The notes under the pieces are model-generated. The model worked only from the letters and a program-made list of their open reading frames with translations. It did not search any database and had not been told where the DNA came from. A program made the position numbers and the translations under genes. From positions 496,001 to 560,000 of the forward strand of contig JAWPHD010000131.1 of NCBI GenBank assembly GCA_037043455.1: a DNA stretch of 64,000 nucleotides. The letters are read 5' to 3'. This document shows, one piece after another, positions 15,086 through 57,519 of the stretch. The stretch comes from Cyrtodaria siliqua (lineage: Eukaryota > Mollusca > Bivalvia > Adapedonta > Hiatellidae). How positions within the stretch are numbered: position 1 is the first letter of the stretch; each line of letters begins with the position of its first letter.

Positions 15086-15514
15086 CAGGGAGTAAGTTAT
15101 AGGGAGGAGAAACGGGCTCGTTTTGCCGATTTATGTTGTCGCGCATGTGTTTCACTACTCCGTGAAAATGACTACTTCCGGTTGTTTCGCGAGTGTGTGG
15201 AAAAACAGCAAATACTTATAAATTATAACACTTACAAATTCAATACAGGTGCTAAATGTAAACATAAGTATTATTTATTCACATTGTGTCCTCTGATACA
15301 GAGCGTGTATTTGTTTGCATGTTTAAAAGCACATTTTACCGGTTCCGTGTAACAAAGATGGCGCCACTCTGCGCCAAATAAAAAATGGTGACAGTGTATA
15401 GCTATTGCAAACGAGATAAGAAGAAGAAGAAGATTTTATTCATAAATCAATAGGCCATAGAGACTACGGGTTATTTAGGCATTAATAATAACAAAAAGTG
15501 AATAGTAAACATAT
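15086..15514. mobile_element. hAT-like MITE, left part (split by the LTR element)
   Basis: Starts CAGGGAGTAAGTTATAGGGA; the inverted counterpart ends at 27926. The terminal inverted repeats match over about 30 bases and again around ACATAAATCG. GTGTAAG flanks both outer ends (15079-15085 and 27927-27933). Without the 11.97-kb insertion the element would be about 870 bp. A CAGGG terminus and a 7-8 bp duplication suggest the hAT superfamily; that class is inference. Confidence 0.8.
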
Positions 15515-15720
15515 TAAAGCAATCTTGCCCTAGATATACATATTATACAGTGATTACAAATGGTAACTCACGTAATCAGAAGTCAGACACAGTCAGATGG
15601 AGGTTTTCCACTGTATTGGGTTGACGTCTGTCTTGTATGAGCTCTGGATTTGTAATGAATTCCAGGCTACAAACCGGAAGTGACGTATTTACCTAGACTG
15701 GTTCTAGCATAATTGCTACA
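15515..15720 (-). repeat. 3' LTR
   Basis: Identical over its whole length to 27275-27480. In sense orientation it begins TGTAGC and ends GCTTTA, so only the 5' end follows the TG..CA rule. Confidence 0.95.
15674..15687 (-). promoter_or_regulatory. CRE/ETS-like motif in LTR
   Basis: The sense strand reads TACGTCACTTCCGG, joining a CRE-like TACGTCA to an ETS-like ACTTCCGG. The same lies at 27434-27447 in the 5' LTR. Motif match only; a TATA-like GTATAATATG occurs further downstream in the LTR. Confidence 0.35.
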
Positions 15721-15740
15721 CACCTCCCCGTTCTCTTTTG
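15721..15740 (-). other. polypurine tract
   Basis: Directly upstream of the 3' LTR the sense strand reads AAAAGAGAACGGGGAGGTG, almost all purine, as expected for the primer of plus-strand DNA synthesis. Confidence 0.85.
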
Positions 15741-15760
15741 TAGAACTTCGTGGAATTCTT

Positions 15761-15840
15761 TGATTACCTGGATTGTGGGCTGAGACAAGCTCTAGTCCTT
15801 TGATTACCTGGATTGTGGGCTGAGACAAGCTCTAGTCCTT
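15761..15840 (-). repeat. 40-bp tandem duplication in the 3' untranslated region
   Basis: Two identical copies of a 40-base unit containing TGATTACCTGGATTGTGGGC. The surrounding 250 bases repeat TTCTAGTCC several times; no coding sequence lies between the third ORF and the LTR. Confidence 0.9.
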
Positions 15841-15973
15841 TGTGAGTCTTCAGCTTGAGAGAAGTATTCTTGTAAACTGGGACTGAATTAGATTCTAGTC
15901 CTAGCCTCTTTTTAGTTTCCTCACCCAGAATGGACTGAAATAAATTCTAGTCCGGGGACTGTACATGTTCTTT

Positions 15974-18900
15974 TTACATGTTCGTCGTTGATTCCTCCAC
16001 GGATGAGGCCACATAGAGTTGTTCCTCATTCACCCTGGAAGTCTGGATAACGACTGAAACTGGTTCTAGTCGTACCCGGGCCACCTGGTATGCCACGTCT
16101 CCAATGTAAGCCGGTGTTGTGACAACCAACCCAATGAGCATGGGTAAATAGGGTGCATCGGTCTCTATGAGGAGTCGATCTTGAGGGACGGCCTTAAGTG
16201 CTTCTCGTTGGGCTTTATTAAACCGAGAAACTTGCCCAGTAAATCCGAAGTAGCAATTCGGAAACGCACTTCTCCATGCTTTTAGCTGGTCCAGGTCCCC
16301 ACCGAAACAGTGTAAATGTATTCCTTGTTCTGGTGGGCAGTGACGCTTTACTATGTCCAGGCAGTGAGTTGAGACTTCTGCCAGATGGTCTCCTCTACTG
16401 CCTCTTATGTGTAAGACTAACACCAGCCTTGGATTGCACAGGCCCAATACCTTTTCCAACGTTCGGGTCTGGTTTTCCCATGTTGTAGAGGGATCGGTAT
16501 AATCTAGACCTACTTCCCCTAAAGCTACCACTTCTGGTTTCATCAGAATTTGGGCCAGACGATCAAATCTTGCCGGGGTAAGTTGCTCGATCTTCTTAGG
16601 ATGAACGCCCACAGCAACTCTCCATTGACTACCTAAACCCCACGGTATGTTCCCATGATTTATTGGGTCACAAAAAACCATTACTCCTCCCACCAGGGTT
16701 GTTGGGTGTTGAGATATTACCTCAGTGCTTTGAGTAACCACTCTCTCTAGGTCCTTCATTGACACGTTTAAGGTCTTAGAAAGACGATCGAGATGAAAGT
16801 GGCTATCAAACGCCTCGTTGTTTCTGCTGGTCAAGAGAGCTGGTTCCGGAGGTTTCGTCTCGGGACTTTGTCGAGCTTGAGGATTTATTCGGGCAACCGG
16901 AGACCTCTTTGCCATTGCTGCGTAGGAGGGCCTGGGTCCCGAAGAGGACACACATGACCCCAAAACGGTTATAGCAGGAAGAGTCCTCGTATACACGGCA
17001 CTTGCAACACTCCCGTCTGTCGTTAGCTCTGAAGGAGACTCAACGAGACTGGGCTCTGTCACAATGACTTCTGTCCTTAATTTGGTAGGTGACCCATCTA
17101 GACTGCCATGATCGGATCTCAGCAAAGCCTCTTCTTCACTCTGGGATGGAATTTCGATGGATCCAGCATTAGGTTTGTCTGGACTATCCTGATAATCCAA
17201 TTCCAGGTCCTTCATGGTGACGTCCGATACAAGAGTTAGATCCTGTACCTGCCTTGGTAGGGGCTCTTCCACAAGGGACAGCTTCAGTCCAGTTGTTGTT
17301 CCACAAGCGAACACAGACTGGGACATCCTTGATAGTGATCCACTTGTGGTTGAAGTCAATGAGACTGGTACTCCTGTAGTAGAAGTCAACACTAGGCTTC
17401 GTTCCTTGGATACCGACTCCTCCTTGGCTGGGGTTTCCTGATTCTCTTCAGAGACGTGTGTTTCCCGATTCTTGGCCTTGGCCCGTCTGATGGGATTAGG
17501 TCGATTCCTTCGGGACTTGCTGAACCCAGGAACAGATTGAGACGCAGTTGTTTGAACTGGTTCAACATCCGGTCCAAAATGCTCCCACATTAGTCTAGAG
17601 TCCGGTCCTGTGAGACGACTCATAAGGAATGACAATGGTCTCCAATGGATGAGCACGGCTGGCGAGTTGACAGGATTCAGTGTAAACTTCCCTGGATCAA
17701 TCCACCCTGCGGCTTGACACAAGCTTAGCATCGCTCTCCCGGTCTCGGGGGTTATAGTAGCTAGCGGGTCAATCCACAGGTTCGTCTCGACAAACCTTAC
17801 CAGTCTCTCTGGAGTTCCATCAGCACCAAGGACCATGGTAGCCAAGAGTTTGAGTCCTAATAGACGGCGCTCCTGAAACGAACGACTACTCAGCATTTCC
17901 GGGGTCTCGAAATCGTGAAACACTACCGGTATGTGTTTAGAGTAAACATGTCGTTTCACTCTGCGGGCATAAATTCCACAATCCTCTAAAGGACAGCAAG
18001 ATCTTCTAATCTTCTTGGCTGGTTCCGTTGGTAGGGGGGAATCTTGTGCCCTCTTGAGTGGAGCTCTTCGATCCTTGTCTATGGGATCATCCAGAGGTCG
18101 TCTTCTACCAGGGTCTACTGGAGATCTCCTAGAAGAATGCGAACCTCTGTGATCCCGGTGTGATTGGCGTCGTGAAATTCGATGAACCTGTTGGGCATAC
18201 CTCCGATCCAAAGGGGAACTTGAACTACTATGGCGTCGTCCTAGATGTTTCCTGGATGGACTTCTCCGGGATGAACGCGAACTTCGTTGTCGTTCATACA
18301 CCGGTGAGTAGTATTTCACTGCCCTCTGTGGCGAACGTGAAACTCTCCGGTCCGGATGAGGACGCACATCTTTTCGGTGTCCCTGGTGTTCCTTAGATTT
18401 CCTGGAGGGATTTCTCCGGTCCATAGGTGGACTCAAAGATCCCCGGTGATCCTTGTTGTAGGAATCTTTTCGACTTTTTCGGCGTTCCCGGTGTTCCCTG
18501 GATGGGCTTCTCCGGTCCCTAGGTGGACTCAAAGATCCCTGGTAGTCCTTGTTGTAGAACACCCGCGTCTCATACCGTTTATGGCTTAATGATCGCCCCT
18601 TTTCCACGACTGGCCGTGATATTCTGAAATCCACCACCAAGGGATTTGGTCCAGTCTTGGGTCTCGGGCCTATAGATCTGTGACCAGTCTCAGCTCTTGG
18701 TATGATGGACTTCTTCTTTGGTATAGATGCCTCCCTTGGCAACAGATAATCCCGAAGGAGGGAGGGAGAGGTCTCGCATGCCCGTGAAATCATGATCGGT
18801 TTTGCTCGAGCAGGTGAAACGCTGTACCCTTCCCTTGTTTGTGGTATCCGGATATCTATTTCCATCTCAGATACCTTACCGGTTGGATTAGTGTCAGCCT

Positions 18901-19372
18901 CGGCATCCTTTGGTCTAGTGACGGTCGCTGATCTAGAGACGATGGTCGCTAGATCAGCAACTCGCTGTGGCACTGACTGTTGTTTTGGTTGATCGCTGAC
19001 TTTCGCATCAGCCTCCTGGGTTCTACCGGCGGTCGCTGGTTTAGCAACTCGCTGTTTAGTTGACCGCTGCTTAGGTTGGCCGATGTCCTTTGGAATAGGA
19101 AAATTGTCCTTTATTTCCTTCCGGCTCAGAAATATCTCACATGCCCATTGGAAGTCTCGTATCCATGGCACATATTTCCTCTCTACGGCCAGACCATATT
19201 GCCCTTTGGCCAGCTGCAAGTAGGACGCTGTGGATATGCCTCTGATCATTCCTAGGTCCCTGGCTAACTGTACCGCAGGCACGAGAATCCCTCTGGAGGT
19301 TGAAGACCGGATGTCCTTCTCTCCCTTTGACATCACCCGCTTCCAGTCTTCATCCTTCGGGACCTCCATCAT
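15974..19372 (-). CDS. retrotransposon third ORF: RS-rich protein with C-terminal TatD-family nuclease domain
   Basis: A 1132-residue ORF in the position where retroviruses carry env. Residues 1-100 form a lysine/arginine-rich segment of unknown fold; 270-430 are RS/SR-dipeptide rich as in splicing regulators; about 458-480 hold a C-x4-C-x9-H-x4-H zinc-finger-like motif (CPLEDC...KRHVYSKH); 490-610 are probably helical with no known match; 850-1090 are a TatD-type metal-dependent deoxyribonuclease. All expected metal ligands are present: H858 and H860 (DSHFH), E953 (GEVGLD), H988 (LVLH), H1021 (HLHCFGG), D1072 (ETDAPYL). TatD enzymes are 3'-5' exo- and AP-type nucleases. No signal peptide or membrane segment, so not an envelope. 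The ATG lies 19 bases after the pol stop in another frame; reinitiation or a spliced RNA is needed. A TTATTTTAG acceptor-like word lies just upstream. The role in the element is unknown. Confidence 0.93.
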   Translation of the reverse strand: MMEVPKDEDWKRVMSKGEKDIRSSTSRGILVPAVQLARDLGMIRGISTASYLQLAKGQYGLAVERKYVPWIRDFQWACEIFLSRKEIKDNFPIPKDIGQPKQRSTKQRVAKPATAGRTQEADAKVSDQPKQQSVPQRVADLATIVSRSATVTRPKDAEADTNPTGKVSEMEIDIRIPQTREGYSVSPARAKPIMISRACETSPSLLRDYLLPREASIPKKKSIIPRAETGHRSIGPRPKTGPNPLVVDFRISRPVVEKGRSLSHKRYETRVFYNKDYQGSLSPPRDRRSPSREHRERRKSRKDSYNKDHRGSLSPPMDRRNPSRKSKEHQGHRKDVRPHPDRRVSRSPQRAVKYYSPVYERQRSSRSSRRSPSRKHLGRRHSSSSSPLDRRYAQQVHRISRRQSHRDHRGSHSSRRSPVDPGRRRPLDDPIDKDRRAPLKRAQDSPLPTEPAKKIRRSCCPLEDCGIYARRVKRHVYSKHIPVVFHDFETPEMLSSRSFQERRLLGLKLLATMVLGADGTPERLVRFVETNLWIDPLATITPETGRAMLSLCQAAGWIDPGKFTLNPVNSPAVLIHWRPLSFLMSRLTGPDSRLMWEHFGPDVEPVQTTASQSVPGFSKSRRNRPNPIRRAKAKNRETHVSEENQETPAKEESVSKERSLVLTSTTGVPVSLTSTTSGSLSRMSQSVFACGTTTGLKLSLVEEPLPRQVQDLTLVSDVTMKDLELDYQDSPDKPNAGSIEIPSQSEEEALLRSDHGSLDGSPTKLRTEVIVTEPSLVESPSELTTDGSVASAVYTRTLPAITVLGSCVSSSGPRPSYAAMAKRSPVARINPQARQSPETKPPEPALLTSRNNEAFDSHFHLDRLSKTLNVSMKDLERVVTQSTEVISQHPTTLVGGVMVFCDPINHGNIPWGLGSQWRVAVGVHPKKIEQLTPARFDRLAQILMKPEVVALGEVGLDYTDPSTTWENQTRTLEKVLGLCNPRLVLVLHIRGSRGDHLAEVSTHCLDIVKRHCPPEQGIHLHCFGGDLDQLKAWRSAFPNCYFGFTGQVSRFNKAQREALKAVPQDRLLIETDAPYLPMLIGLVVTTPAYIGDVAYQVARVRLEPVSVVIQTSRVNEEQLYVASSVEESTTNM

Positions 19373-19382
19373 GGCCGTATAC

Positions 19383-19391
19383 CTAAAATAA
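19383..19391 (-). promoter_or_regulatory. candidate 3' splice site before the third ORF
   Basis: The sense strand reads TTATTTTAG then GTATACGGCC and ATGATGG. The T-rich AG between the pol stop and the ORF start could accept a leader donor and make a subgenomic mRNA. The tract is short; weak on its own. Confidence 0.35.
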
Positions 19392-22300
19392 TTAAGGACT
19401 CGGTTCAGGTCTCACGATTGGGTCAGCCTTACAATTTGGGCAAGCATATTTCCCTAACCGCTTAACCATTTTGCTAGTAACCCCTACGCAAGCCCCGTGA
19501 AACCAATCTAGGCAGTCATCACACTGGACCATTAATTTCCCATCATCTGGCTTTCGGCAAGTACAATACAATTTTTCGTCCTCAAGGGCCCCCGCTTTAT
19601 CTACAGGACGTTCTGCTGTTAAGAGAGTGGGATCTTTCTGAAGTCGGATAATCCACGCAGGCAACTCTCTGTCCGAACAGAACTTCAGGCGATCGTGGTT
19701 TACAACAAATTCCTTGTTTCGGATCTTTACGCGAAACAACGCCGCTGTTATTTTTTCCACAACAATTCCAGGGCCTTTATACTTAGGACAAAGCTTCTTG
19801 CTTGTACCTTTTGTAGATGCTGTGTCCAACACAAACACTGGGTCTCCTACTTTGTATGTTTTCACAAGAACCTTGACATCATAATCTCTTTTCATCCGTT
19901 CTTGTGCTGTCTTGAGAGTTTCTCGGGCTACTTCATGAGCGGTCGTGATTGCCCCTCCCAACTCTTTAACATACTCATCCGGGGATTGTTCTGCCACTGA
20001 TCTGGGTGCTCCTGGAAACAATAAATCTGCTGGCTGGTTCAATTCCCTACCCAACATTAATCTGTTTGGCGTAAATCCGGTCTGACGATTGACCGAGGAC
20101 CTTATAGCTCCCGCCAACTGTGCCAGATGCTTATCCCAGCTGTTTTGGTTACCCACAAAACACCGGACCGCATCCATCAATGTTCTATTGAAACGCTCTA
20201 CCTGGCCGTTTGCGGAGGGCCGGTAAGGAGTGGTTCTAGACTTGTGGATTCCCAAAAGTTTGCAAATTGTGCTGAACAATTGACTTTCAAAGTTCCTACC
20301 TTGGTCGGTATGGATCTGAAATGGATACCCAAATCTGCTGAAGAATTCCGTGACGGCTGCATGGGCGGTTATCTCAGCTGTCTGTGATGGCAAAGGTATG
20401 CATTCTATCCATTTGGTGAACTGGTCTACCATCATCAGCACATACTCATTTCCCTGAGGTGTCTTCGGAAGAGGTCCCATAAAATCTAAATGAACTCTCT
20501 CCATTGGGGCTCCTGCCTGGAAATTTGTGAGAGGGAACCGGCCTAGTCTGTTTCCCCCTTTATTACGGTTGCACAGTCCGCAGGTACCCACATAATTTTT
20601 AATGGCTATAGACATTCCATACCAGTAATATTTTTCTTTGATACGTGCTTTGGTTCTATCCACGCCCTGGTGTCCCGCTGATGGTATATCATGATTGGCG
20701 TGTATCATAACTGTCTGCAATGATTTTGGTACCACTAAAAGGGTTTGACCGTCGAGCAATTTCTTCCATATTACTTGTGACTTCAAGCAGAACACCTCCT
20801 TGTTGATCCAGTAATACTTTGCTGCAGGGCTCGAAGAAAATAGCACATCCTCCTCTGGGATTTTCTGCTGTTCCAACCAGGCAGCTATTAACTTCAAATC
20901 AGTGTCCTCTTGTTGTTCTTTTAGAATATCCCAGTCATCATTGTCTAAAGTTACGCTTTTCACCTGCTGTTCAGGCCATGTAGTCTTGATCTGTATGACC
21001 TGACCTTTTATTTCTTCTCCTTGGAACACTGTGCGTTTGGAACCAGTCGCAAGTGGTTTGACATCGTCCACCGTCTCTGCAAAGTCTGACCAGTTTCTAT
21101 GTGCTTTCTCACAATACTTGCAAGGATAACATGGCAAGTCTGCTAGCTTCATACCCAGCCTGTATTCGGGACAGACCGCGTCTTCTTCTGGTCGTCTAGA
21201 CAGGGCATCTGCATTTCCATGTTTCTTTCCAGGGTGGTGTTCTATGACCAGGTGATATTGACTCAGCTCCTCAATCCATCTGGCCAGTTGCCCTTGGGGT
21301 TCTTTGAAGTTGAGAAGCCAGGTCAGACTACTATGATCTGTTCGCACCGTGAACTCTCTACCTAATAGATAATGTCTATATTGTCTTGTAAATCGCACAA
21401 CTGCTAACAGTTCCTTTCTAGTCACACAATACCGTCTTTGTTCATGGGATAGTGATAAACTGCCGAAACAAATCACTTTTTCTAGGCCAGCTTGAAGTTG
21501 TAACAGCTCTGCACCTATGGCTACCTCGGACGCATCTGTATCCAGGATGAAATAGTCAGTTTTATTCGGGAGTGCCAACACTGGTGTTGTTGTTAATGCT
21601 CTCTTGATGTTTATAAAAGCAACTTCCTGTGCCTCTCCCCACTCAAACTTATTCTTCCCTGTAATGCTGTACAAAGGCGCTGCCAGATGAGCAAAATCTT
21701 TAATGAAGCTCCTGTGGTAATTTACCAATCCCAGAAATTGTTCAACCTGTTTTGTATTTTTGGGTACGGACCAATCCTGTACAGCTTTGATATGACTTTC
21801 TCCTAATGCTAAACCCTCTGGTCCAACCATTCTTCCCAGGAATTCTACCTTTATTTGGAATAGGACACATTTACGGGGTTTTAATTTTAGTCGAAAGGTT
21901 CTAAATCGTTCCAGCACTTTTCTGAGATTCTTTAAATGCTCAGCAAAGATCCTACCCAAAACTAAGATGTCGTCAAGGAATGCGAGGACAATATCCCAAT
22001 TCAAACCTCTTAGAACTAAGTTCATCACTCGACAATAGGTAGCCGGGGCGTTGGTCAATCCGAACGGCATCCGAACAAACTCATATAATCCATACTTCGT
22101 ACAAAAAGCAGTCTTCTTCCGGTCCTCCGGTTTTAATTTGACCTGCCAATAAGCGGAGTTAGCGACGAGTTTGGAAAATAATGTGTTACCCGCCAGAGTG
22201 TCTAGACAGTCGTCTACTAGTGGCAATGGGAAAACATCCTTGACTGTTACAGCATTGAGGGCTCTGTAGTCTACACACCACCTGACGCTCCCATCTCGTT

Positions 22301-23597
22301 TTCGGATCAGGACTGGAGGGGATGCCCATTCCGACATAGAGGGTTTAACCACTTTTGTTTTTAGCATCTTTTCTAGATTTGCCTTTTCTTCACCAGCAAA
22401 ACAGATCGGTGTCCGTCGCATACGTTGCTTAACTGGTCTTTCGTTACCCGTATCAATAGCATGTTCAACTTCTGTAAAGTTTCCAAGATCTAGATCATCT
22501 TTGGCAAACACATCTTCGAATTCCACAAGTAAATCGGTGAGCTGTTCCTTTTCTTCATTGTTTAAGTTTATCACGGATCGCTCTAATAAACCTTGTAGGT
22601 GGGGTGGAATTTCCTTAGCTGGCTGCTCGTCGTGAGATATCTTTTGAATGATTATCTCTTCATAGCCATGTTCATCCTCTTCCATTGGCATTGACACCAT
22701 CGTAACCTCTGTTGCAAATCCAATGTGCTGTTTGCCCATCAAAATAATGTTTTGATCCGACACATTAACTACACAAACCTTTGGTTGTGTATTTCCAGAA
22801 TGCACCGTTCTTGGCATTGCCCCTGGCATGTCTTTTGTTGGCTCTATCATGAACTGCGACATCGGCCTACTGACTGAACATTCTACCCTCTTTACTGAAT
22901 TTGGTGGAACTACTGTTCTTTTGCATACCACTACATTGGCTACTCTTTCTCGCATCGTGGGCGCTCCTAACACCATTGAAATACATTCTTCGCCCAAGAT
23001 CATCTCAGTTTTCTGCAGATCGAGGGTGATACATTGCTTCCTCAAGAAATCCAATCCTAGAAGCATGTCATCTTCTATGGGCGCTACATACACTTCTTCG
23101 AGATATTTCCTCTTCCCCAGGGTCAATGAAACCGGTCCTATAACCGAACCGGGTATTTTCATTTGTCTTCCAGCAGTCTGTAGAACAATCTTTCTAATTG
23201 TGGGTGGTTTTCTCACAAGTTGGTTATATATCTTGTCTGATATTATAGTCACCTGAGCGGCTGTGTCGACTACCGCTTTTAACTCCATTTCTTCTATTGT
23301 CACAGGCACTTTTAACATCGACTCTGAGCGCAACTGGTTTACAAAGATGGGCTCTTCATAACTAGTGCTAATCTCAATATCTGATGGCAACTCATCGATG
23401 GACTTGGTTATGTGGATGTTCTCGAATGTTGTTGCTTCATTGTTATCGGACTGCACTAGATCTGCAAACCGTTGGCCTTTTTTGCTTTCATGTGTTGTTG
23501 TCAGGTCTTCAGCAAGATTATCGGAGTCTATTGGATGGCCTTCCTCGTCATGGGTTGATCTCAGGCCTGACTGATCAACCCTGGTTGGTTTAAATCC
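19392..23597 (-). CDS. pol: Pol polyprotein: protease, RT, RNase H, integrase, PHD finger
   Basis: Residues are counted from the GTG at 23456. Protease motif VDTAAQ with D64 (usual D-T/S-G altered to DTA); RT with FLDD at D495-D496 in place of YxDD; RNase H with DTDAS near 640; integrase zinc domain (HANH...CGLC); integrase core D991, D1051, E1087, a DD35E arrangement; a C-terminal integrase region (YKGPGIV). Residues 1296-1346 are a full C4HC3 PHD finger (LYCTC, QCDDC, WFHGAC, ACPNC). The frame is open upstream of 23456 to 23597 and overlaps gag by 37 bases, so translation as Gag-Pol by -1 frameshift is expected and no own start is needed. PHD fingers with a tyrosine before the first cysteine and a DWFHG tryptophan often bind H3K4me3; here that would guide integration. 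That is inference. Confidence 0.96.
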   Translation of the reverse strand, partial: GFKPTRVDQSGLRSTHDEEGHPIDSDNLAEDLTTTHESKKGQRFADLVQSDNNEATTFENIHITKSIDELPSDIEISTSYEEPIFVNQLRSESMLKVPVTIEEMELKAVVDTAAQVTIISDKIYNQLVRKPPTIRKIVLQTAGRQMKIPGSVIGPVSLTLGKRKYLEEVYVAPIEDDMLLGLDFLRKQCITLDLQKTEMILGEECISMVLGAPTMRERVANVVVCKRTVVPPNSVKRVECSVSRPMSQFMIEPTKDMPGAMPRTVHSGNTQPKVCVVNVSDQNIILMGKQHIGFATEVTMVSMPMEEDEHGYEEIIIQKISHDEQPAKEIPPHLQGLLERSVINLNNEEKEQLTDLLVEFEDVFAKDDLDLGNFTEVEHAIDTGNERPVKQRMRRTPICFAGEEKANLEKMLKTKVVKPSMSEWASPPVLIRKRDGSVRWCVDYRALNAVTVKDVFPLPLVDDCLDTLAGNTLFSKLVANSAYWQVKLKPEDRKKTAFCTKYGLYEFVRMPFGLTNAPATYCRVMNLVLRGLNWDIVLAFLDDILVLGRIFAEHLKNLRKVLERFRTFRLKLKPRKCVLFQIKVEFLGRMVGPEGLALGESHIKAVQDWSVPKNTKQVEQFLGLVNYHRSFIKDFAHLAAPLYSITGKNKFEWGEAQEVAFINIKRALTTTPVLALPNKTDYFILDTDASEVAIGAELLQLQAGLEKVICFGSLSLSHEQRRYCVTRKELLAVVRFTRQYRHYLLGREFTVRTDHSSLTWLLNFKEPQGQLARWIEELSQYHLVIEHHPGKKHGNADALSRRPEEDAVCPEYRLGMKLADLPCYPCKYCEKAHRNWSDFAETVDDVKPLATGSKRTVFQGEEIKGQVIQIKTTWPEQQVKSVTLDNDDWDILKEQQEDTDLKLIAAWLEQQKIPEEDVLFSSSPAAKYYWINKEVFCLKSQVIWKKLLDGQTLLVVPKSLQTVMIHANHDIPSAGHQGVDRTKARIKEKYYWYGMSIAIKNYVGTCGLCNRNKGGNRLGRFPLTNFQAGAPMERVHLDFMGPLPKTPQGNEYVLMMVDQFTKWIECIPLPSQTAEITAHAAVTEFFSRFGYPFQIHTDQGRNFESQLFSTICKLLGIHKSRTTPYRPSANGQVERFNRTLMDAVRCFVGNQNSWDKHLAQLAGAIRSSVNRQTGFTPNRLMLGRELNQPADLLFPGAPRSVAEQSPDEYVKELGGAITTAHEVARETLKTAQERMKRDYDVKVLVKTYKVGDPVFVLDTASTKGTSKKLCPKYKGPGIVVEKITAALFRVKIRNKEFVVNHDRLKFCSDRELPAWIIRLQKDPTLLTAERPVDKAGALEDEKLYCTCRKPDDGKLMVQCDDCLDWFHGACVGVTSKMVKRLGKYACPNCKADPIVRPEPSP
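23552..23594 (-). promoter_or_regulatory. programmed -1 ribosomal frameshift signal (gag-pol)
   Basis: The sense strand has the slippery heptamer TTTAAAC (23588-23594), in gag frame T TTA AAC at codons 648-649. Six bases later comes a perfect 9-bp stem, GGGTTGATC with GATCAACCC (23573-23581 with 23552-23560). The loop contains the self-complementary TCAGGCCTGA, and the gag stop TGA (23561-23563) lies in it. Moving back one base places the ribosome in the pol frame, which is open there. Heptamer, spacing and stem all fit the known -1 mechanism. Confidence 0.93.
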
Positions 23598-25534
23598 TCA
23601 TCACTGGAATCAATGTCGCTGTCCTCCTCCTCTTCATAGGTTTGATCATCCTCGACTACCTGAGACACTTTCTTCTCTTCTTTCCTTAACCGGGGGCAAT
23701 TTGTTTTATAGTGACCTTCTTGATTGCACTCGTAACATACCACTGACCTCATTCGGTTCGGCGACCTGGATGGGGACCGGGATTGGGAACGTGCTTCTCT
23801 ACGAGAATTCGTCAGCCTCTCCATGGCTTCCAATAAACTAGTTATTTTGGAATCCATGCTGCCCAATTTGGTATCCATACTGTCCATTCTATTCTCTAGA
23901 CGCTTCGTTTTTTTCTTCCATTCCGAGGACTTTTCTTCGATATTCCCGGTTTTCGGTATTACCTGAGGTTTTTCTTCGAAACGCACTTTCCTTTGAACCT
24001 CAGGTTGTGGTGCAAGCCTAGCAACTCTGGGAGTTATAACATTGAACGACTCCTCTCCCTCACTTTCCCTTTCATAATATGGGTCAAATGCTCTAGTCGC
24101 CATTACTTTCATGGGGTCTCTTTTGGTGGTCGGTCGATGAAACATAATTCTGTCCGTATGTTGGTACCACCGAATTTTGTCTATGGCTTCCTCCATGGTT
24201 TGCGGTCTAAGGTTGAGAGCATATTGTGCGGCTGTTCTATCTAGACATCCTTGGCAGAATTTCAGTATGGCTTGTTTGTATATCTGCGTGTCGGTCAAAT
24301 CCGGATAAGCTTTCATTGCCAAACACACGATTCTATCCGCCCATTCTACTGTTGATTCTGCAACTGATTGTGTTGCATATGAAAAACTAACTTGAGCCGT
24401 CTCAGGAAGTTCTTTCATATCAAATCGTTTCTCCAATTTGTCTAATACATCGAAGAGGTCCATTCCAGGCTCTCTTTCAATCAATCTAGAGTAGAATTCA
24501 CTAGCTCTTCCTTCTAAACTCCAGCACAAGTTGTTCCTCCTTTCTTTTGATGTCCATGCCTGACCATCAGCGAAAGATGTGAATTTGGTCTTAAATGCTT
24601 GCCAGTTTCCTTTACCATCAAAGGAAATAGACTTTGGCATTGATACGGACCGTGGTTTTACTGGATCCTTGAAAGGTCGTGGAGGTCCCACCAGTTGCAT
24701 TGGTGGCGGGTAACCAATTGGTGGTGGGTACGGTCTTTGAGCCATATCTATAGGTATATAGCCTGGGTATGTTTGTTGGTTGTTGACACCGTAATAACCA
24801 CCACTATACGCGTCTCTTTGTACATTTGACGGTGGTATACCTGTAGACCAAACTGGTGTTTTGAGAGATGCATCATACTGGAACTGTTGTTCTCGATATG
24901 TGCTCCCATCTGTCATCCTAGCTCGCGAAGGATCATATCGGATAGTTGTATCTCGATATTTGCTGTCGTCTCCTCTAGATGAATAAGGGTCAATTCTCAA
25001 TTGCGATTCTTGATTGTTACCCCTTTCTATCACCTTAAACGATGGGGACGCAATTGGTTGTTGTCCACTAGTTCCTTCTGGATTTTGTGTTTGTGGAGTT
25101 TTAACACTGTGAGACATTTCAGATATGTTCTCACTTGTTTGTTGATTTTGTGCGACTGGGCCGGTGTATGGGCTGGAATGTATCGCATCTATTGTGCGAG
25201 TCATGAACTCCCTCGTTTCCTTTTCCTCTTTCAATGCCCTTGAGTTATCTTGCCCTGATGTTATATCTAGGGCAGATCTGTTTTCTAGGGCTATAGGGTC
25301 TCTTTGTATAGGATTTGGTTGCCAAAATGTAAAATCTATACAGTCGACCAAGTTAACATTAGGCCTTATGTTCATTGAAATGAAATCCTCCCGAGATATG
25401 TTCCCATTCGCTTCCCTAAATTGCATTATATAATGCGCAATTTTATTACCGATACCCGGTAATGTCATTAAATCCCTTGCTGCACAAAAATTAATTCTAA
25501 CCTTTGACCCCAAGTAAGACTGACCCGAGTACAT
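23561..25534 (-). CDS. gag: Gag with N-terminal helix-hairpin-helix and CCHC zinc knuckle
   Basis: 657 residues. Residues about 12-55 match a ComEA-type helix-hairpin-helix: INFCAARDLMTLPGIGNK, then a helix and REANGNISREDF. HhH motifs bind DNA backbones without sequence preference and are not standard in Gag. Residues 60-290 are low-complexity, rich in Q, P, Y and S. About 295-460 form a capsid-like region (FDGKGNWQAFKTKF...WADRIV). About 540-575 is a probable coiled coil, followed by an RS-rich patch and the knuckle C600-x2-C603-x4-H608-x4-C613. The C-terminus is acidic (EEEEDSDIDSSDED) and ends in the frameshift zone. The ATG follows a T-rich leader. Confidence 0.93.
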   Translation of the reverse strand: MYSGQSYLGSKVRINFCAARDLMTLPGIGNKIAHYIMQFREANGNISREDFISMNIRPNVNLVDCIDFTFWQPNPIQRDPIALENRSALDITSGQDNSRALKEEKETREFMTRTIDAIHSSPYTGPVAQNQQTSENISEMSHSVKTPQTQNPEGTSGQQPIASPSFKVIERGNNQESQLRIDPYSSRGDDSKYRDTTIRYDPSRARMTDGSTYREQQFQYDASLKTPVWSTGIPPSNVQRDAYSGGYYGVNNQQTYPGYIPIDMAQRPYPPPIGYPPPMQLVGPPRPFKDPVKPRSVSMPKSISFDGKGNWQAFKTKFTSFADGQAWTSKERRNNLCWSLEGRASEFYSRLIEREPGMDLFDVLDKLEKRFDMKELPETAQVSFSYATQSVAESTVEWADRIVCLAMKAYPDLTDTQIYKQAILKFCQGCLDRTAAQYALNLRPQTMEEAIDKIRWYQHTDRIMFHRPTTKRDPMKVMATRAFDPYYERESEGEESFNVITPRVARLAPQPEVQRKVRFEEKPQVIPKTGNIEEKSSEWKKKTKRLENRMDSMDTKLGSMDSKITSLLEAMERLTNSRREARSQSRSPSRSPNRMRSVVCYECNQEGHYKTNCPRLRKEEKKVSQVVEDDQTYEEEEDSDIDSSDEDLNQPGLISQA

Positions 25535-27259
25535 GATTAGAATTAACAGTGATGAGAATAAAAAAATAGAAAATAAAAAAATAAAAAAAATGAAAAATTA
25601 CATAATTTCTGAAAGATAATTTTACTTACATTTTTAATAATTTTACATATTTATAAATAACGAAAGATATTGTATAATTGATAACTGGTAGTTTTGATTT
25701 AATTGAAAACCAAACCTTATCGATGAATAAGCCTGTGATGACACACTAGGCTTTTTGTCTTGTATCCCTTATCCCGCCATCCTGTGGTGTTACACTAGGA
25801 TGGTTACTAATATGCTCTTCGTGGTCCTGCACTTTAACTAGAACCAGTAAGAGATGTAATTACTCTGTGATAAAAAAAATATCAGTTATCTAAAAGTAAT
25901 AAAAAAAAATATTCGATATAGGAAGTATCCCTTTAAAAAAAATATATATATTCCTTACCGCACACAATAAAAGAGAAGAAACCGACAATTTCTCTCGTTT
26001 AGTGTTTGCGAGTAAGTGTCCCTTTAAAAAAAAAAATCTTATAGGAAGTTGCCCTTTAAAAAATTGTTCTTAAGTGTACATATTCTTTTTAAAAAAATAA
26101 ATAAAAAAAATCCCTTACCGCAACACAATAAAAGAGAAGAAACCGACAATTTCTTTCATTTAGTGTGAGCGAGTAAGTGTCCCCTTAATTTTTAAAAAAA
26201 AAAAGTGTATAAAAAAACAAAAGTTTACTTACCGCAACACACCAAAAGAGAAGAAACCGACAATTTCTTTCGTTTAGTGTGAGCGAGCAAGTGTTTCTTT
26301 AAAAAAAATTAAATCTTGAATACCATGTACTCTTTCTAAAGAATATATCACCTTTAAAAAAGTTTACTTACCGCAACACACCAAAAGAGACGAAACCGAC
26401 AGTTTCCTTCGTTTAGTGCGAGCGAGTAAGTATCCCTTTAAAAAAATATTATTGAATACTAAGTACCCTTTCTAAAGAATATATCACCTTTAAAAAAGTT
26501 TACTTACCGCAACACACCAAAAAAGACGAAACCGACAGTTTCCCTCGTTTAGTGCGAGCGAGTAAGTATCCCTTTAAAAAAAATAATATTCTTGAATACT
26601 ATGTACCCTTTGAAAGAATATATCACCTTTAAAAAAGTTTACTTACCGCAACACACCAAAAGAGAAGAAACCGACAATTTCTTTCATTTAGTGTGAGCGA
26701 GTAAGCGTCGCTTTAAAAAAATTAAATATTCTTGAAGTGAATATATCCCTTTAAGAGCAATACAAGAGTGAAGTGCTCTGTAATAAATTTTTTTTTATTT
26801 TAGAGTTTGAATATTTCTTTTAAAGTTTATCATATAATAATTTTGAACTCTAAAGATTTCTATGCATTAAATTATATGTTTTTCCTTTGATTAATCGATG
26901 TTTTTATTTCGATTTTGATGTTCCGGTTTGCAAAACGGATGTTTACAATTTGCAATACCTCGTGGTTCTAAATACATATCACTGCGCATGCTTCCAAGTT
27001 GAGCAAGCCGGATATGGTATGGCTGCCTTCCCGCCAAATTGCGTTTACCGCAACACAATAAAAGATAAAAACCGACAGTTTTTTCTCTTCTAGAGTGCTA
27101 ACGGACATAAAATGTCATCAAACAACATACAACAGTTGTTTACAACAGTTGTCTACCGAATTATTCGGCAACAGACCGAAATTCTACATCGAGCCTAACT
27201 TTGCTATCGATGTGAATTCCACAAGTGGGATTTTCCCAATATGTGCCTCTAGGTACAAT
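25535..27259 (-). other. 1.7-kb leader of the retrotransposon
   Basis: Noncoding, AT-rich, between the primer-binding site and gag. It contains the repeat array at 25950-27100. Near its 3' end the sense strand has ATCTTTCAG (splice-acceptor-like) and a long T-rich tract before the gag ATG. Confidence 0.8.
25950..27100 (-). repeat. seven-copy leader repeat carrying splice-donor consensus
   Basis: A ~75-base core recurs with TTACCG at 25955, 26115, 26229, 26368, 26504, 26643 and 27055. In sense orientation each unit reads from ACTYRCTCGC through CGGTTTCTTC to TTGCGGTAAGT. Four units (the third to sixth listed) have GCG|GTAAGT, two have GCG|GTAAGG, and the copy nearest the 5' LTR has GCGGTAAAC. 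Spacing is 114-160 bases, then 412 to the last. These are strong candidate 5' splice sites, or a packaging/promoter array. Confidence 0.9.
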
Positions 27260-27273
27260 TGCCGACAACGCCA
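27260..27273 (-). other. primer-binding site (probably tRNA-Ser type)
   Basis: One base after the 5' LTR the sense strand reads TGGCGTTGTCGGC. It is complementary to a tRNA 3' end of the form CGACAACG + CCA. A G discriminator with that acceptor stem fits serine tRNAs; the identity is inference. Confidence 0.65.
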
Positions 27274-27274
27274 T

Positions 27275-27480
27275 TAAAGCAATCTTGCCCTAGATATACA
27301 TATTATACAGTGATTACAAATGGTAACTCACGTAATCAGAAGTCAGACACAGTCAGATGGAGGTTTTCCACTGTATTGGGTTGACGTCTGTCTTGTATGA
27401 GCTCTGGATTTGTAATGAATTCCAGGCTACAAACCGGAAGTGACGTATTTACCTAGACTGGTTCTAGCATAATTGCTACA
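27275..27480 (-). repeat. 5' LTR
   Basis: Identical to 15515-15720. Supplies promoter and transcription start for the minus-strand element. Confidence 0.95.
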
Positions 27481-27484
27481 ATAT

Positions 27485-28978: not shown

Positions 28979-29735
28979 ATTCTACCCCATTGCAATTATA
29001 TTTAAAATCGTAATTTTTCCAGATTTATTAAAGATAATAACTTTAGTCTTGTTGATATTAACTGATAACCAAAGAGTTCTGTAAGCCTCTCGCACTCTTC
29101 GACAGTAAAATTGCATACATGATACGTTTAAATCATCTACAGGCGCGCAAGTATCATCAAACAATCCAAAGAGGTCGTTTAAGTATAATGTAAAGTGTTG
29201 GACATAGAATGCAACCTTGTTTTACTCCAGTATTTGTAGTGAATGAGTCACTTGGACCCTCACTTGTTTTTACAGAACAAGATGGACCTTGATACATATC
29301 TTTAATAATCTTCAAAAATGTACACTTTATATTATATACTTTCAATTCATGGAGCAGTTTTCTATTAACTGTGTCAAACGCCTTACTCAAATCTATAAAA
29401 CATGCAAACAAATATTTTGACGATTTAAATGCTTTATCAATTAACGTTTTTAAAGTTAGAATATGGTCACTATTACGACAATTCTTCCTAAAATTTATTT
29501 GTTCATAAGATAAAATATTGTTATCTTCTATAAAAGTACCATGCCTATTAAACAGAACTCTGCTGAACAATTTGATAAAACAGCTAGGGAAAATAATTCC
29601 CCTATAGTTTGCTGGAACTAAATTACAGCCACCTTTATATAAAGGCGTGTGAAATTGACCACTTTTTAAAATAAAATTGAATACAAAAACATATTCTTTA
29701 ATTAAGTGATGATTGTTTAGGCTATGTGTGACGGT
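28979..29735 (-). pseudogene. LINE reverse transcriptase fragment
   Basis: The minus strand encodes part of an RT: PANYRGI, then FIDLSKAFDTVNR (motif A) and GVKQGC (motif B). The catalytic box is damaged, reading LFDDT in another frame where FADDT is expected, followed by VNINKTKVIIFNKSGK. At least one frameshift and an in-frame deletion are evident, so it is dead. The right part of the RT and the endonuclease are missing. It is a non-LTR element of the Jockey/I or CR1 type; clade uncertain. The piggyBac-like MITE at 28794-28974 adjoins it. Confidence 0.8.
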
Positions 29736-29741
29736 CAATTT

Positions 29742-37404: not shown

Positions 37405-40400
37405 ACCATATATCTGCCCACAGACATCCAGACACGCCTGAGCAGCCTCAGTATATCTGCCCACAGACATCCAGACACACCTGAGCAGCCTCAGAATATC
37501 TGCCCACAGACATCCAGACACACCTGAGCAGCCTCAGTATATCTGCCCACAGACATCCAGACACGCCTGAGCAGCCTCAGTATATCTGCCCACAGACATC
37601 CAGACACACCTGAGCAGCCTCAGTATATCTGCCCACAGACATCCAGACACACCTGAACAGCCTCAGTATATCTGCAAACAGACATGCCTGAGCAGCCTCA
37701 GTATATCTGCACAGAGACATCCAGACTTGCCTGAGCAGTCTCAGTTTATCTGCCAACAGACATCCAGACACACCTGAGCAGCCTCAGTATATCTGCCCAG
37801 AGACATCCAGACACACATTAACAGCCTCAGTATATCTGCCAACAGACATCCAGACACACCTGAGCAGCCTCAGTATATCTACCCACAGACATCCAGACAC
37901 GCCTGAGCAGCCTCAGTATATCTGCCCACAGACATCCAGACACACCTGAACAGTCTCAGTATATCTGCCCACAGACATCCTGACACGCCTCAGCAGCCTC
38001 AGTATATCTGCCCACAGACATCCAGACTTGCCTGAGCAGCCTCAGTATATCTGACCAACAGACATCCAGACACACCTGAGCAGCATCAGTATATCTGCCC
38101 ACAGACATCCAGACACGCCTGAGCAGCCTCAGTATATCTGCCCACAGACATCCAGACACGCCTGAGCAGCCTCAGTATATCTGCCAACAGACATCCAGAC
38201 TTGCCTGAGCAGCCTCAGTATATCTGCACACAGACATCCAGACACACATGAGCAGCCTCAGTATATCTGCCCACAGACATCCAGACATACCTGAGCAGCC
38301 TCAGAATATCTGCCCACAGACATGCCTGAGCAGCCTGAGTATATCTGCCCACAGAGATCCAGACACACCTGAGCAGTCTCAGTATATCTGCCCACAGACA
38401 TCCAGACACACCTGAGCAGCCTCAGTATATCTGCCCACAGACATCCAGACATGCCTGAGCAGCCTCAGTATATCTGCCCACAGACATCCAGACACGCCTG
38501 AGCAGCCTCAGTATATCTGCCCACAGACATCCAGACATGCCTGAGCAGCCTCAGTATATCTGCCAACAGACATCCAGACATGCCTGAGCAGCCTCAGTAT
38601 ATCTGCCCACAGACATCCAGACACGCCTGAGCAGCATCAGTATATCTGCAAACAGACATCCAGACACACCTGAGCAGCCTCAGTATATCTGCAAACAGAC
38701 ATCCAGACACACCTGAGCAGCCTCAGTATATCTGCCCACAGACATCCAGACATGCCTGAGCAGCCTCAGTATATCTGCCCACAGACATCCAGACACACCT
38801 GGAGCAGCCTCAGTATATCTGCCCACAGACATCCAGACACGCCTGAGCAGCATCAGTATATCTGCAAACAGACATCCAGACACGCCTGAGCAGCCTCAGT
38901 ATATCTGCAAACAGACATCCAGACACGCCTGAGCAGCCTCAGTATATCTGCCCACAGACATCCAGACACGCCTGAGCAGCCTCAGTATATCTGTCCACAG
39001 ACATCCAGACACGCCTGAGCAGCCTCAGTATATCTGCCCACAGACATCCAGACACGCCTGAGCAGCCTCAGTATATCTGACCACAGACATCCAGACACGC
39101 CTGACCAGCCTCAGTATATCTGCCCACAGACATCCAGACACGCCTGAGCAGCCTCAGTATATCTGCCCACAGACATCCAGACACGCCTGAGCAGCCTCAG
39201 TATATCTGACCACAGACATCCAGACACGCCTGAGCAGCCTCAGTATATCTGCCCACAGACATCCAGACACGCCTGAGCAGCCTCAGTATATCTGCCCACA
39301 GACATCCAGACACGCCTGAGCAGCCTCAGTATATCTGTCCACAGACATCCAGACACGCCTGAGCAGCCTCAGTATATCTGTCCACAGACATCCAGACACG
39401 CCTGAGCAGCCTCAGTATATCTGACCACAGACATCCAGACACGCCTGAGCAGCCTCAGTATATCTGCCCACAGACATCCAGACACGCCTGAGCAGCCTCA
39501 GTATATCTGACCACAGACATCCAGACACGCCTGAGCAGCCTCAGTATATCTGCCCACAGACATCCAGACACGCCTGAGCAGCCTCAGTATATCTGTCCAC
39601 AGACATCCAGACACGCCTGAGCAGCCTCAGTATATCTGACCACAGACATACAGACACGCCTGAGCAGCCTCAGTATATCTGTCCACAGACATCCAGACAC
39701 GCCTGAGCAGCCTCAGTATATCTGACCACAGACATACAGACACACCTGAGCAGCCTCAGTATATCTGCCCACAGACATCCAGACACGCCTGAGCAGCCTC
39801 AGTATATCTGCCCACAGACATCCAGACATGCCTGATCAGCCTCAGTATATCTGCAAACAGACATCCAGACACGCCTGAGCAGCCTCAGTATATCTGCCCA
39901 CAGACATCCAGACACGCCTGAGCATCCTCAGTATATCTGCCCACAGACATCCAGACACGCTTGAGCAGCCTCAGTATATCTGCCAACAGACAACCAGACA
40001 CACCTGAGCAGCTTCAGTATATCTGCCGAAAAACATCCAGACACGTCTGAGCAGCCTCAGTATATCTGCCCACAGACATCCAGACACACCTGAGCAGCCT
40101 CAGTATATCTGCCAACAGACATCCAGACTTGCCTGAGCAGCCTCAGTATATCTGCACAGAGACATCCAGACACACCTGAGCAGCCTCAGTATATCTGCCC
40201 ACAGACATCCAGACATGCCTGAGCAGCCTCAGTATATCTGCCAACAGACATCCAGACACACCTGAGCAGCCTCAGTATGTCTGCCAACAGACATCCAGAC
40301 TTGCCTGAGCAGCCTCAGTATATCTGCACACAGACATCCATACATGCCTGAGCAGCCACAGTAAATCTGCCCACAGACATCCACACACCTGAGCAGCCTC

Positions 40401-43400: not shown

Positions 43401-45390
43401 TGAGCAGCCTCAGTATATCTGCCCACAGACATCCAGACACACCTGAGCAGCCTCAGTATGTCTGCCAACAGACATCCATACACGCCTGAGCAGCCTCAGT
43501 ATATCTGCAAACAGACATCCAGACACACCTGAGCAGCCTCAGTATATCTGCCCACAGACATCCAGACATGCCTGAGCAGCCTCAGTATATCTGCCCACAG
43601 ACATCCAGACACACCTGAGCAGCCTCAGTATGTCTGCCAACAGACATCCATACACGCCTGAGCAGCCTCAGTATATCTGCAAACAGACATCCAGACACAC
43701 CTGAGCAGCCTCAGTATATCTGCCCACAGACATCCAGACATGCCTGAGCAGCCTCAGTATATCTGCCCACAGACATCCAGACACACCTGAGCAGCCTCAG
43801 TATATCTGCCCACAGACATCCAGACATGCCTGAGCAGCCTCAGTATATCTGCCCACAGACATCCAGACACACCTGAGCAGCCTCAGTATGTCTGCCAACA
43901 GACATCCATACACGCCTGAGCAGCCTCAGTATATCTGCAAACAGACATCCAGACACACCTGAGCAGCCTCAGTATATCTGCCCACAGACATCCAGACATG
44001 CCTGAGCAGCCTCAGTATATCTGCCCACAGACATCCAGACTTGCCTGAGCAGCCTCAGAATATCTGCCCACAGACATCCAGACACACCTGAGCAGCCTCA
44101 GTATATCTGCCCACAGACATCCAGACACACCTGAGCAGCCTCAGTATATCTGCCCACAGACATGCTTGAGCAGCCTCAGTATATCTGCCTACAGACATCC
44201 AGACACACCTGAGCAACCTCAGTATATCTGCCCACAGACATCCAGACACATAGAGCAGCCTCAGTATATCTGTCCACAGACATCCAGACATGCCTGAGCA
44301 GCCTCAGTATATCTGCCCACAGACATCCAGACACACCTGAGCAACCTCAGTATATCTGCCCACAGACATCCAGACACATTGAGCAGCCTCAGTATATCTG
44401 TCCACAGACATCCAGACATGCCTGAGCAGCCTCAGTATATCTGCCCACAGACATCCAGACACACCTAAGCAGCCTCAGTATATCTGCCCACAGACATCCA
44501 GACACACCTGAGCAGCCTCAGTATATCTGCCCACAGACATCCAGACACACCTAAGCAGCCTCAGTATATCTGCCCACAGACATCCAGACACACCTGAGCA
44601 GCCTCAGTATATCTGCCCACAGACATCCAGACATGCCTGAGCAGCCTCAGTATATCTGACCACAGACATCCAGACACACCTGAGCAGCCTCAGTATATCT
44701 GCCCACAGACATCCAGACATGCCTGAGCAGCCTCAGTATATCTGCCCACAGACATCCAGACTTGCCTGAGCAGCCTCAGTATATCTGCCCACAGACATTC
44801 AGACACACCTGAGCAGCCTCAGTATATCTGCCAACAGACATCCAGACACACCTGAGCAGCCTCACTATATCTGCCCACAGACATCCAGATATGCCTGAGC
44901 AGCCTCAGTATATCTGCAAACAGACATCCAGACACACCTGAGCAGCCTCACTATATCTGCCCACAGACATCCAGACACACCTGAGCAGCCTCAGTATATC
45001 TGCCCACAGACATCCAGACACACCTGAGCAGTCTCAGTATATCTGCAAACAGACATCCAGACACACCTGAGCAGCCTCAGTATATCTGCCCACAGACATC
45101 CAGACACACCTGAGCAGCCTCAGTATATCTGCCAACAGACATCCAGACACACCTGAGCAGCCTCAGTATATCTGCCCACAGACATCCAGACACACCTAAG
45201 CAGTCTCAGTTTATCTGCACACAGACATCCAGTCATGCCTGAGCAGCCTCAGTATATCTGCCCACAGACATCCAGACATGCCTGAGCAGCCTCAGTATAT
45301 CTGCCCACAGACATCCAGACACACCTAAGCAGTCTCAGTATATCTGCCCACAGACATCCAGACATGCCTGAGCAGCCTCGGTAGATAAGG
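37405..45390. repeat. ~8-kb minisatellite, 43-bp unit, ~185 copies
   Basis: The unit is CCTGAGCAGCCTCAGTATAT + CTGCCCACAGACATCCAGACACA. Variants cluster: CACGCC with TCTGACCAC or TCTGTCCAC dominates 38880-39980, and CACACC dominates elsewhere. Marked segments recur at multiples of 43 (GTAAATCTGCCCACAG near 41220 and 41650; CCATACACGCC near 43457, 43629, 43887), which shows block duplication. The minus strand carries CAG|GTGTGT in CACACC units. The 64-95 residue frames here are artefacts. It lies in one intron of the channel gene. Confidence 0.95.
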
Positions 45391-57328: not shown

Positions 57329-57519
57329 ATAAAATAAGAAATCGTGTTTAGAGATCTCATATATTTATCAGCTATTATCTATGACTTGGCCACTATATAT
57401 ATTGGCCTTGATTTTACTTTGTTGTGTCGCCTGCATAGGATGGCACTTAGGGATCACTTTGTATATCATCCGTTGTCGTCTGTCATCGTCCGCTGTCTGT
57501 CGTCCGTTCGTCACGTTTT

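What the first reader, a model, noticed from the sequence alone, without database searches (positions are those of the whole stretch)
15974..19372. LTR retrotransposon encodes a TatD-family nuclease in the env position
All six expected metal-ligand residues are intact, the ORF has no break over 1132 codons, and it lies within identical LTRs 19 bases after pol. This looks like a cellular DNA-repair/apoptotic nuclease captured by a mobile element. It could trim DNA ends, process flaps at integration or act on host DNA. I do not recall a described Ty3/gypsy group defined by it, but I could not search.
Basis: partly seen in the sequence, partly recalled or inferred. Interest (0 to 1): 0.92.

Follow-up and report, generated by a model that had tools for sequence, protein, structure and literature searches.

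The report
Retrotransposon clade carrying a DNA-cutting enzyme
A jumping element in this animal genome carries, in the place where retroviruses keep their envelope gene, what looks like an intact nuclease of a repair-enzyme family, and distantly related elements in the same genome carry it too, so it looks like a long-kept working part rather than a chance passenger.

Summary
In a 12-kb LTR element (window 15515-27480) the third ORF (15974-19411; 1132 codons from its ATG, 19 nt after the pol stop) ends in a TatD domain (Pfam E 5.3e-37) with all six metal ligands. It is not a one-off. Of 40 scored ORF3 loci in the host assembly, 34 have the LTR 168-254 nt after ORF3, 29 keep all six ligands, one has a ligand substitution and 10 lack or do not align a ligand position. 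All 33 scored pol loci have ORF3 or its TatD downstream. Variants shared between copies are depleted of amino-acid changes in TatD, a sign of selection while the element spread. One copy each of three further families, with pol about 45-52% identical, also has a zinc-finger plus TatD ORF after pol with the ligands intact. TatD thus looks like an old, retained part of a Ty3/gypsy-like lineage. Likely role: a nuclear accessory nuclease acting on RNA:DNA hybrids or DNA ends of the element. Role, donor gene and spread beyond this genome are untested. No such element turned up in my literature searches; nuclease ORF3s of another fold exist in bdelloid rotifers.

The parts
27275..27480 (-). 5' LTR (TGTAGC...GCTTTA, 206 bp)
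   Evidence: the repeat finder gives 208 identical bases 27273-27480 / 15513-15720; end set by flanks and target duplication
15515..15720 (-). 3' LTR, identical to the 5' LTR
27481..27484 (-). target-site duplication ATAT, 5' side
   Evidence: a second copy (C5614) shows ATAC on both sides
15511..15514 (-). target-site duplication ATAT, 3' side
27256..27273 (-). probable primer binding site, TGGCGTTGTCGGC..., one base after the 5' LTR
   Evidence: sequence; tRNA not identified
26051..26736 (-). tandem array of about 139-bp units in the 5' leader
23561..25597 (-). gag ORF: helix-hairpin-helix near the N-terminus, PNMA-like capsid (below Pfam cut-off), CCHC knuckle
19392..23597 (-). pol ORF: aspartic protease, reverse transcriptase, RNase H, integrase, PHD finger
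19431..19565 (-). PHD finger at the end of pol
   Evidence: PF00628, E 1e-9, residues 1345-1389
19383..19391 (-). splice-acceptor-like tract (TTATTTTAG) between the pol stop and the ORF3 ATG; possible route to a spliced ORF3 mRNA (inference)
   Evidence: sequence only
15974..19411 (-). ORF3, open 1145 codons; first ATG 19372, 1132 codons
17609..18016 (-). conserved middle of ORF3: C2H2-like zinc finger (CCPLEDC...KRHVYSKH) and a domain with an H-W motif
   Evidence: 37% identity to the 803-aa family over residues 466-601; alignment of four families; no Pfam family at E up to 1
16013..16810 (-). TatD DNase domain, class II type (HxH), ligands H871 H873 E966 H1001 H1034 D1085
   Evidence: PF01026 E 5.3e-37; ligands in 40 copies; fold
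15721..15735 (-). polypurine tract (GAGAACGGGGAGGTG) before the 3' LTR
   Evidence: sequence; its last ten bases recur before the LTR in the other copies whose 3' LTR start was printed

Best explanation
The window holds a young copy of a multicopy Ty3/gypsy-like LTR retrotransposon whose third ORF is a retained accessory nuclease. Shown: gag, pol and ORF3 lie between identical LTRs; ORF3 ends in a class II type TatD domain with an intact metal site and has, before it, a long part with a basic, Ser/Arg-rich stretch and a zinc finger and no envelope features; the same ORF type follows pol in four diverged families (three seen in one copy each); and in this family TatD bears marks of purifying selection. 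Inferred: one ancestral element captured a TatD gene, possibly of the TATDN2 type, and its descendants kept it. The protein would be made from a separate (perhaps spliced) mRNA, enter the nucleus through its basic region, and be held on nucleic acid by the zinc finger. There it would cut RNA:DNA hybrids, free 3' ends or abasic sites in the element's cDNA or at the integration gap, raising the yield of finished insertions.
For: TatD match and ligands. Predicted TatD fold, mean pLDDT 83.9, pTM 0.85; the 17 best PDB rows are TatD-family enzymes or uncharacterised hydrolases (3gg7, 3e2v). ORF3 in 40 scored loci; LTR 168-254 nt after ORF3 on the same strand in 34 of 40, an LTR in another arrangement in 2 of 40, none in the fetched stretch in 4 of 40. 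Eleven copies whose 3' LTR end was printed have eleven different flanks, so they are separate insertions. ORF3 or TatD downstream of pol in 33 of 33 scored pol loci, tallied by hand from the tables. Variants shared by at least two copies have a nonsynonymous/synonymous ratio of 0.275 in TatD (17 syn, 15 non) against 0.816 for singletons (34, 89), Fisher p 0.010; for the pol C-terminus 0.16 against 0.491. Families of 803, 503 and 475 aa (one copy each) have pol upstream (52%, 48% and 45% identical to this pol), ORF3 with zinc finger plus TatD, and all six ligands. The four element TatDs lie on one side of a 100/100 branch from 28 bacterial ones. Class II HxH and a long N-terminal region, often with a nuclear signal, are TATDN2 traits (PMC10085689, abstract and passages); TATDN2 is described as an R-loop ribonuclease with germ-cell expression (PMC12709183, abstract start and passages).
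Against: No activity, expression or localisation data. No host TATDN gene was found or compared, so the donor is open. The LTRs of the other three families were not checked. The selection test treats copies as independent; in the nine uninterrupted copies alone TatD shows 1 shared synonymous change and six singleton changes, all nonsynonymous, too few to test. One copy has the Glu ligand changed to Asp (L007). The long branch between the two pairs of element TatDs is flagged by the tree program, and the pairing of this family with the 803-aa one is weak (92/57). Only best-scoring loci were seen. Everything about the element comes from one genome.
Confidence: 0.7

Rival explanations
1. Counter-defence: ORF3 degrades or blocks host nucleic acid of silencing or sensing (small RNA precursors, R-loops, cytosolic cDNA) rather than processing the element's own DNA.
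For: TatD proteins occur in defence systems: the QatD anti-phage model matches at E 3.9e-17, below its cut-off. Among shared variants the first 860 codons of ORF3 have a higher ratio than TatD (0.531 against 0.275), as a host-facing part might, but the difference is not significant (p 0.12).
Against: No direct evidence; the basic, Ser/Arg-rich region suits nuclear nucleic-acid work of either kind.
Confidence: 0.2
2. Repair of damaged cDNA: TatD acts as an abasic-site endonuclease that clears lesions from the reverse transcript, in the same service as dUTPase in other retroelements.
For: Human TATDN1, TATDN3 and the three E. coli TatD paralogs have AP endonuclease activity (PMC10085689, abstract and passages); a dUTPase domain is encoded by rotifer LTR lineages (PMC5408684, abstract).
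Against: The passages I saw report no AP test for TATDN2, the type that ORF3 resembles in layout; Pfam found no uracil glycosylase or dUTPase in the three ORFs.
Confidence: 0.2
3. A passenger: a host TatD gene was trapped once and merely hitch-hikes.
For: Many copies are broken: 22 of 40 have at least one in-frame stop in the aligned part.
Against: Four families, the other three with pol about 45-52% identical to this one, keep it with all ligands; shared variants show selection; 33 of 33 scored pol loci have it.
Confidence: 0.04
4. An envelope-like protein in which TatD is incidental.
For: Its place after pol and a possible splice acceptor.
Against: No hydrophobic stretch of transmembrane grade: the best 19-residue mean hydropathy is 1.49 and lies inside TatD; Ser/Arg-rich and zinc-finger part before TatD.
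Confidence: 0.03

Closest known systems
Bdelloid rotifer LTR retrotransposons (Vesta, Juno) with DEDDy-exonuclease or GDSL-esterase ORF3 (PMC5408684, abstract and passages)
   Same: Retrovirus-like LTR element, gag, pol, then an enzymatic non-envelope ORF3, family-specific; one ORF3 type is a nuclease
   Different: DEDDy/DnaQ-like or SGNH enzymes, not the TatD metal-dependent barrel; three of those lineages encode dUTPase; their ORF3 types are shared with Penelope-like elements, which was not looked for here
TATDN2 / class II TatD proteins (PMC10085689 and PMC12709183, passages)
   Same: HxH metal site; long N-terminal extension before the TatD domain
   Different: Here encoded by an LTR element, multicopy, one open frame, with a C2H2-like finger and H-W domain; sequence identity to a TATDN2 protein not measured
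Orchid Ty3/gypsy elements with an m6A RNA demethylase domain (PMC9289625, title and start of abstract in a search listing only)
   Same: Ty3/gypsy element that acquired a cellular enzyme domain
   Different: Plant hosts, different enzyme
E. coli TatD and YcfH and S. aureus TatD DNases (PDB 4p5u, 1yix, 6l25)
   Same: Fold and metal site
   Different: 23-25% identity in the structure alignments; free-standing bacterial enzymes

Membership tests
TatD nuclease family (PF01026) | Profile match over the curated cut-off | tested here: met
   128 bits against 27, positions 1-252 of 253
TatD nuclease family (PF01026) | Metal ligands H, H, E, H, H, D | tested here: met
   also read by eye in the 803-, 503- and 475-aa ORFs printed
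TatD nuclease family (PF01026) | TatD barrel fold | tested here: met
   model pLDDT 83.9; best matches TatD structures
TatD nuclease family (PF01026) | Nuclease activity | not testable with these tools
   needs purified protein
TATDN2 orthologue | HxH motif and N-terminal extension | tested here: met
   H871, H873; 867 residues before TatD; trait list
TATDN2 orthologue | Groups with TATDN2 and not TATDN1 or TATDN3 in a tree | not tested
   no TATDN2 sequence was at hand; host genes not recovered; protein search switched off
Ty3/gypsy LTR retrotransposon | LTRs, PBS, PPT, short target duplication | tested here: met
   PBS by position only
Ty3/gypsy LTR retrotransposon | pol order PR-RT-RH-IN | tested here: met
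Ty3/gypsy LTR retrotransposon | RT placed in a named Ty3/gypsy clade by a tree | not tested
   no reference elements were at hand
Env-bearing errantivirus-like element | ORF3 with transmembrane fusion protein features | tested here: not met
   hydropathy scan, Pfam; signal peptide not tested by a program

The most novel reading that the evidence does not exclude
A lineage of animal Ty3/gypsy-like elements, at least four families in one genome and perhaps widespread, is defined by a vertically kept ORF3 nuclease (zinc finger, H-W domain, TatD) that processes RNA:DNA hybrids or DNA ends in the nucleus. Many genes annotated as TATDN2 in mollusc and other invertebrate genomes would then be parts of these elements.
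Probability: 0.45. Interest if true: 0.8.

Novelty: new variant of a known kind. Interest (0 to 1): 0.7.

Why it matters
LTR elements are held to need only gag and pol; a nuclease kept after pol across families with pol only about half identical says that a further DNA- or RNA-processing step is worth its cost. TatD proteins have few known jobs in animals, so an element that keeps one under selection offers a separate handle on what class II TatD enzymes cut. It also warns annotators: multicopy TATDN2-like genes may be transposon ORFs. The giant squid paper lists a predicted TATDN2 ORF together with a POGK (pogo transposable element) gene among the non-Hox genes drawn in its Hox cluster figure (legend passage, PMC6962438); whether that one is an element was not tested.

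Tried and rejected
Viral relatives: the TatD domain alone and pol found none in viral contigs; a TatD alignment found 8 loci, none with a pol or gag match. Known element in print: six searches pairing TatD or TATDN2 with element terms and three looser ones showed no TatD-bearing retrotransposon in titles and abstract starts; most listed papers were not opened. One that kept recurring, PMC5408686, names only a TATDN2P2 retrocopy (passage). Repbase and most subscription papers are not held. Envelope reading: rejected on hydropathy. The first selection count mixed strands and was discarded; replace it. Pfam on the ORF3 parts before TatD found nothing. Copy number by LTR was never obtained. A line that should have searched the LTR in L141-L143 ran with an emptied query file and tells nothing; one search failed for the same reason and one search replaces it. 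In L034 and L035 ORF3 pieces lie on both strands, so their rows are composites; they are among the 10 of 40 without all six ligands.
Full report
WHAT IS THERE. The features lie on the minus strand. Identical direct repeats at 15513-15720 and 27273-27480 are LTRs; reading the junctions sets each LTR at 206 bp (TGTAGC...GCTTTA, 15515-15720 and 27275-27480) with a 4-bp duplication ATAT on both sides. A second copy on contig C5614 has ATAC on both sides, although its target lies in a local repeat. A primer-site-like TGGCGTTGTCGGC follows the 5' LTR after one base and a purine tract precedes the 3' LTR. Between them are gag (23561-25597), pol (19392-23597; protease, RT, RNase H, integrase, PHD finger) and ORF3 (15974-19411).

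ORF3. Pfam finds one family, TatD_DNase, over residues 868-1133 (E 5.3e-37). NCBIfam's best model is TIGR00010 (1.5e-31), below its cut-off. The six ligands H871, H873, E966, H1001, H1034 and D1085 are in place and align with those of bacterial enzymes. The AlphaFold2 model of residues 860-1145 (29-row alignment, mean pLDDT 83.9, pTM 0.85) matches TatD structures best, from S. aureus and E. coli TatD to human TATDN1 and TATDN3; its first 70 residues, which hold the HxH motif, are less sure (block means 59-77). The 867 residues before TatD have a Ser/Arg-rich basic stretch (about 300-450), a C2H2-like finger near 472 and no transmembrane-grade stretch; Pfam names none of it. The ATG is 19 nt after the pol stop, behind a splice-acceptor-like TTATTTTAG; that it is spliced is inference.

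COPIES. The assembly is 2.88 Gb in 26,948 contigs. A protein search with ORF3 scored 40 of 4011 first-look candidates (49 matches in 40 loci); in 12 of the 40 loci ORF3 is open from residue 1 or 2 to 1145 without a stop (counted by hand). On the DNA of all 40 loci, 29 of 40 keep all six ligands, 1 of 40 (L007) has Glu changed to Asp, and 10 of 40 lack or do not align at least one ligand position; 18 of 40 have no in-frame stop in the aligned part. In 34 of 40 the LTR lies 168-254 nt after ORF3 on the same strand; in 2 of 40 (L034, L035) it lies in a rearranged order; in 4 of 40 (L024, L025, L026, L029) none was found in the stretch fetched. Eleven copies whose 3' LTR end was printed run into eleven different flanks. 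A search with pol scored 33 of 17,817 candidates; all 33 contigs also have an ORF3 match or TatD match downstream on the same strand, with extra DNA between in C29 and C4344 (tallied by hand). One of the 33, C2530, is a diverged relative (pol 59-60% identical) with its TatD match about 2.3 kb downstream. Only best-scoring loci are seen, so copies without ORF3 at lower scores cannot be excluded.

SELECTION. Single-base codon variants were split into those shared by at least two of the 40 copies and singletons. In TatD (267 codons) the nonsynonymous/synonymous rate ratio is 0.275 for shared (17 synonymous, 15 nonsynonymous) and 0.816 for singletons, p 0.010. In the first 860 codons of ORF3 it is 0.531 and 0.896 (109, 299), p 0.009. 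The last 332 codons of pol in 29 copies, as yardstick, give 0.16 (18, 10) and 0.491, p 0.015; the PHD finger by itself shows no sign of constraint (shared 0 and 1, singletons 2 and 13). So older variants carry the mark of selection in TatD and recent ones look like decay after insertion. In the nine uninterrupted copies alone TatD has 1 shared synonymous change and 6 nonsynonymous singletons, which says little. The copies are related, so the p-values are only guides.

OTHER FAMILIES. A whole-genome search with PF01026 scored 150 of 556 candidates and all 150 pass the cut-off. Beside this family, the table shows groups of equal open-frame length: by my hand count 20 rows of 803 aa, 10 of 503, 11 of 475, 8 of 481 and 4 of 898. 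I read DNA for one copy each of three. The 803-aa family (L141) has integrase plus PHD finger 52% identical to this pol directly upstream, and its ORF3 matches ours in TatD (37%), the finger/H-W region (37%) and a stretch near the N-terminus (28%). The 503-aa family (L144, L142) has 3 kb of open pol, 48% identical, and the 475-aa family (L146, L143) 2.6 kb, 45% identical; neither gave a match to our PHD finger, and their ORF3s start with the same type of finger; outside TatD their match to ours is by alignment only, not by a significant BLAST hit. All three have HxH, E, H, H and D at the ligand places (by eye, sequences).

ONE ORIGIN. In a tree with 28 bacterial TatDs, the four element domains lie on one side of a branch with 100/100 support; 503 pairs with 475 (100/99) and this family, weakly, with the 803-aa family (92/57), the same split as presence of the PHD finger. 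The program warns of long branches. No host TatD was in the tree, so a single capture by the ancestor is likely but not shown against several captures from one host gene.

HOW IT MAY WORK. PMC10085689 (abstract and passages) describes class II TatD proteins (TATDN2, TATDN3) as having the HxH motif and two metals, and TATDN2 in higher eukaryotes as having an extended N-terminal region often with a nuclear signal; ORF3 fits in layout. PMC12709183 (abstract start and passages) cites TATDN2 as an RNA 3' exonuclease and endonuclease that resolves R-loops and reports germ-cell expression. Reverse transcription makes RNA:DNA hybrids and integration leaves gaps (established knowledge), so a nuclear TatD enzyme could clear hybrids or ends. 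Rivals are abasic-site repair of cDNA and counter-defence. I put about half of my belief on processing of the element's own nucleic acid.

NOVELTY. Nuclease ORF3s have a precedent in bdelloid rotifers (DEDDy type, PMC5408684, abstract and passages), whose authors suggest auxiliary roles. Nine library searches showed no TatD-bearing retrotransposon in their listings. The mollusc LTR survey (PMC6238403) does not contain the word TatD (a find in the text). Hence a new variant of a known kind. The host group is not named by any tool; simple repeats in the window reminded me of bivalves (recalled, not tested).

Noticed in passing
19431-19565 (pol); L141:829-963: A PHD finger closes pol in this family and in the 803-aa family but gave no match in the 503- and 475-aa copies; it may target integration to chromatin as chromodomains do. 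Its own variants show no clear constraint.
   Followed up: partly
23561-25597, residues 31-68 of the gag frame: A helix-hairpin-helix motif (HHH_3, E 4.5e-7; ComEA-like) sits near the start of gag, to my knowledge an unusual place for a DNA-binding motif.
   Followed up: no
26051-26736: The 5' leader holds an array of about 139-bp units, arranged differently in the one other copy compared (L041); possible promoter or packaging repeats.
   Followed up: no
L034, L035 (G000:C4365): Two nearly identical pieces about 7.9 kb apart: ORF3 broken off inside TatD, then an inverted LTR and an inverted TatD stretch; a duplicated rearranged copy.
   Followed up: partly
G000:C2530:139629-146856: A further diverged relative: pol 59-60% identical with a TatD match downstream; DNA not read.
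   Followed up: no
37409-45383: Satellite-like array of 43-bp units, 186 copies, 92% matches.
   Followed up: no
51380-54079: A 30-bp repeat array (84 copies) stays open in frames on both strands and draws a spurious-looking Pfam match (DUF4097).
   Followed up: partly
29157-29741 and 56624-57364: Fragments of other reverse-transcriptase elements (RVT_1; zf-RVT).
   Followed up: no
16013-16810 (ORF3 TatD domain): NCBIfam's QatD (anti-phage TatD nuclease) model matches at E 3.9e-17, below its cut-off; TatD nucleases recur in genetic conflicts.
   Followed up: no
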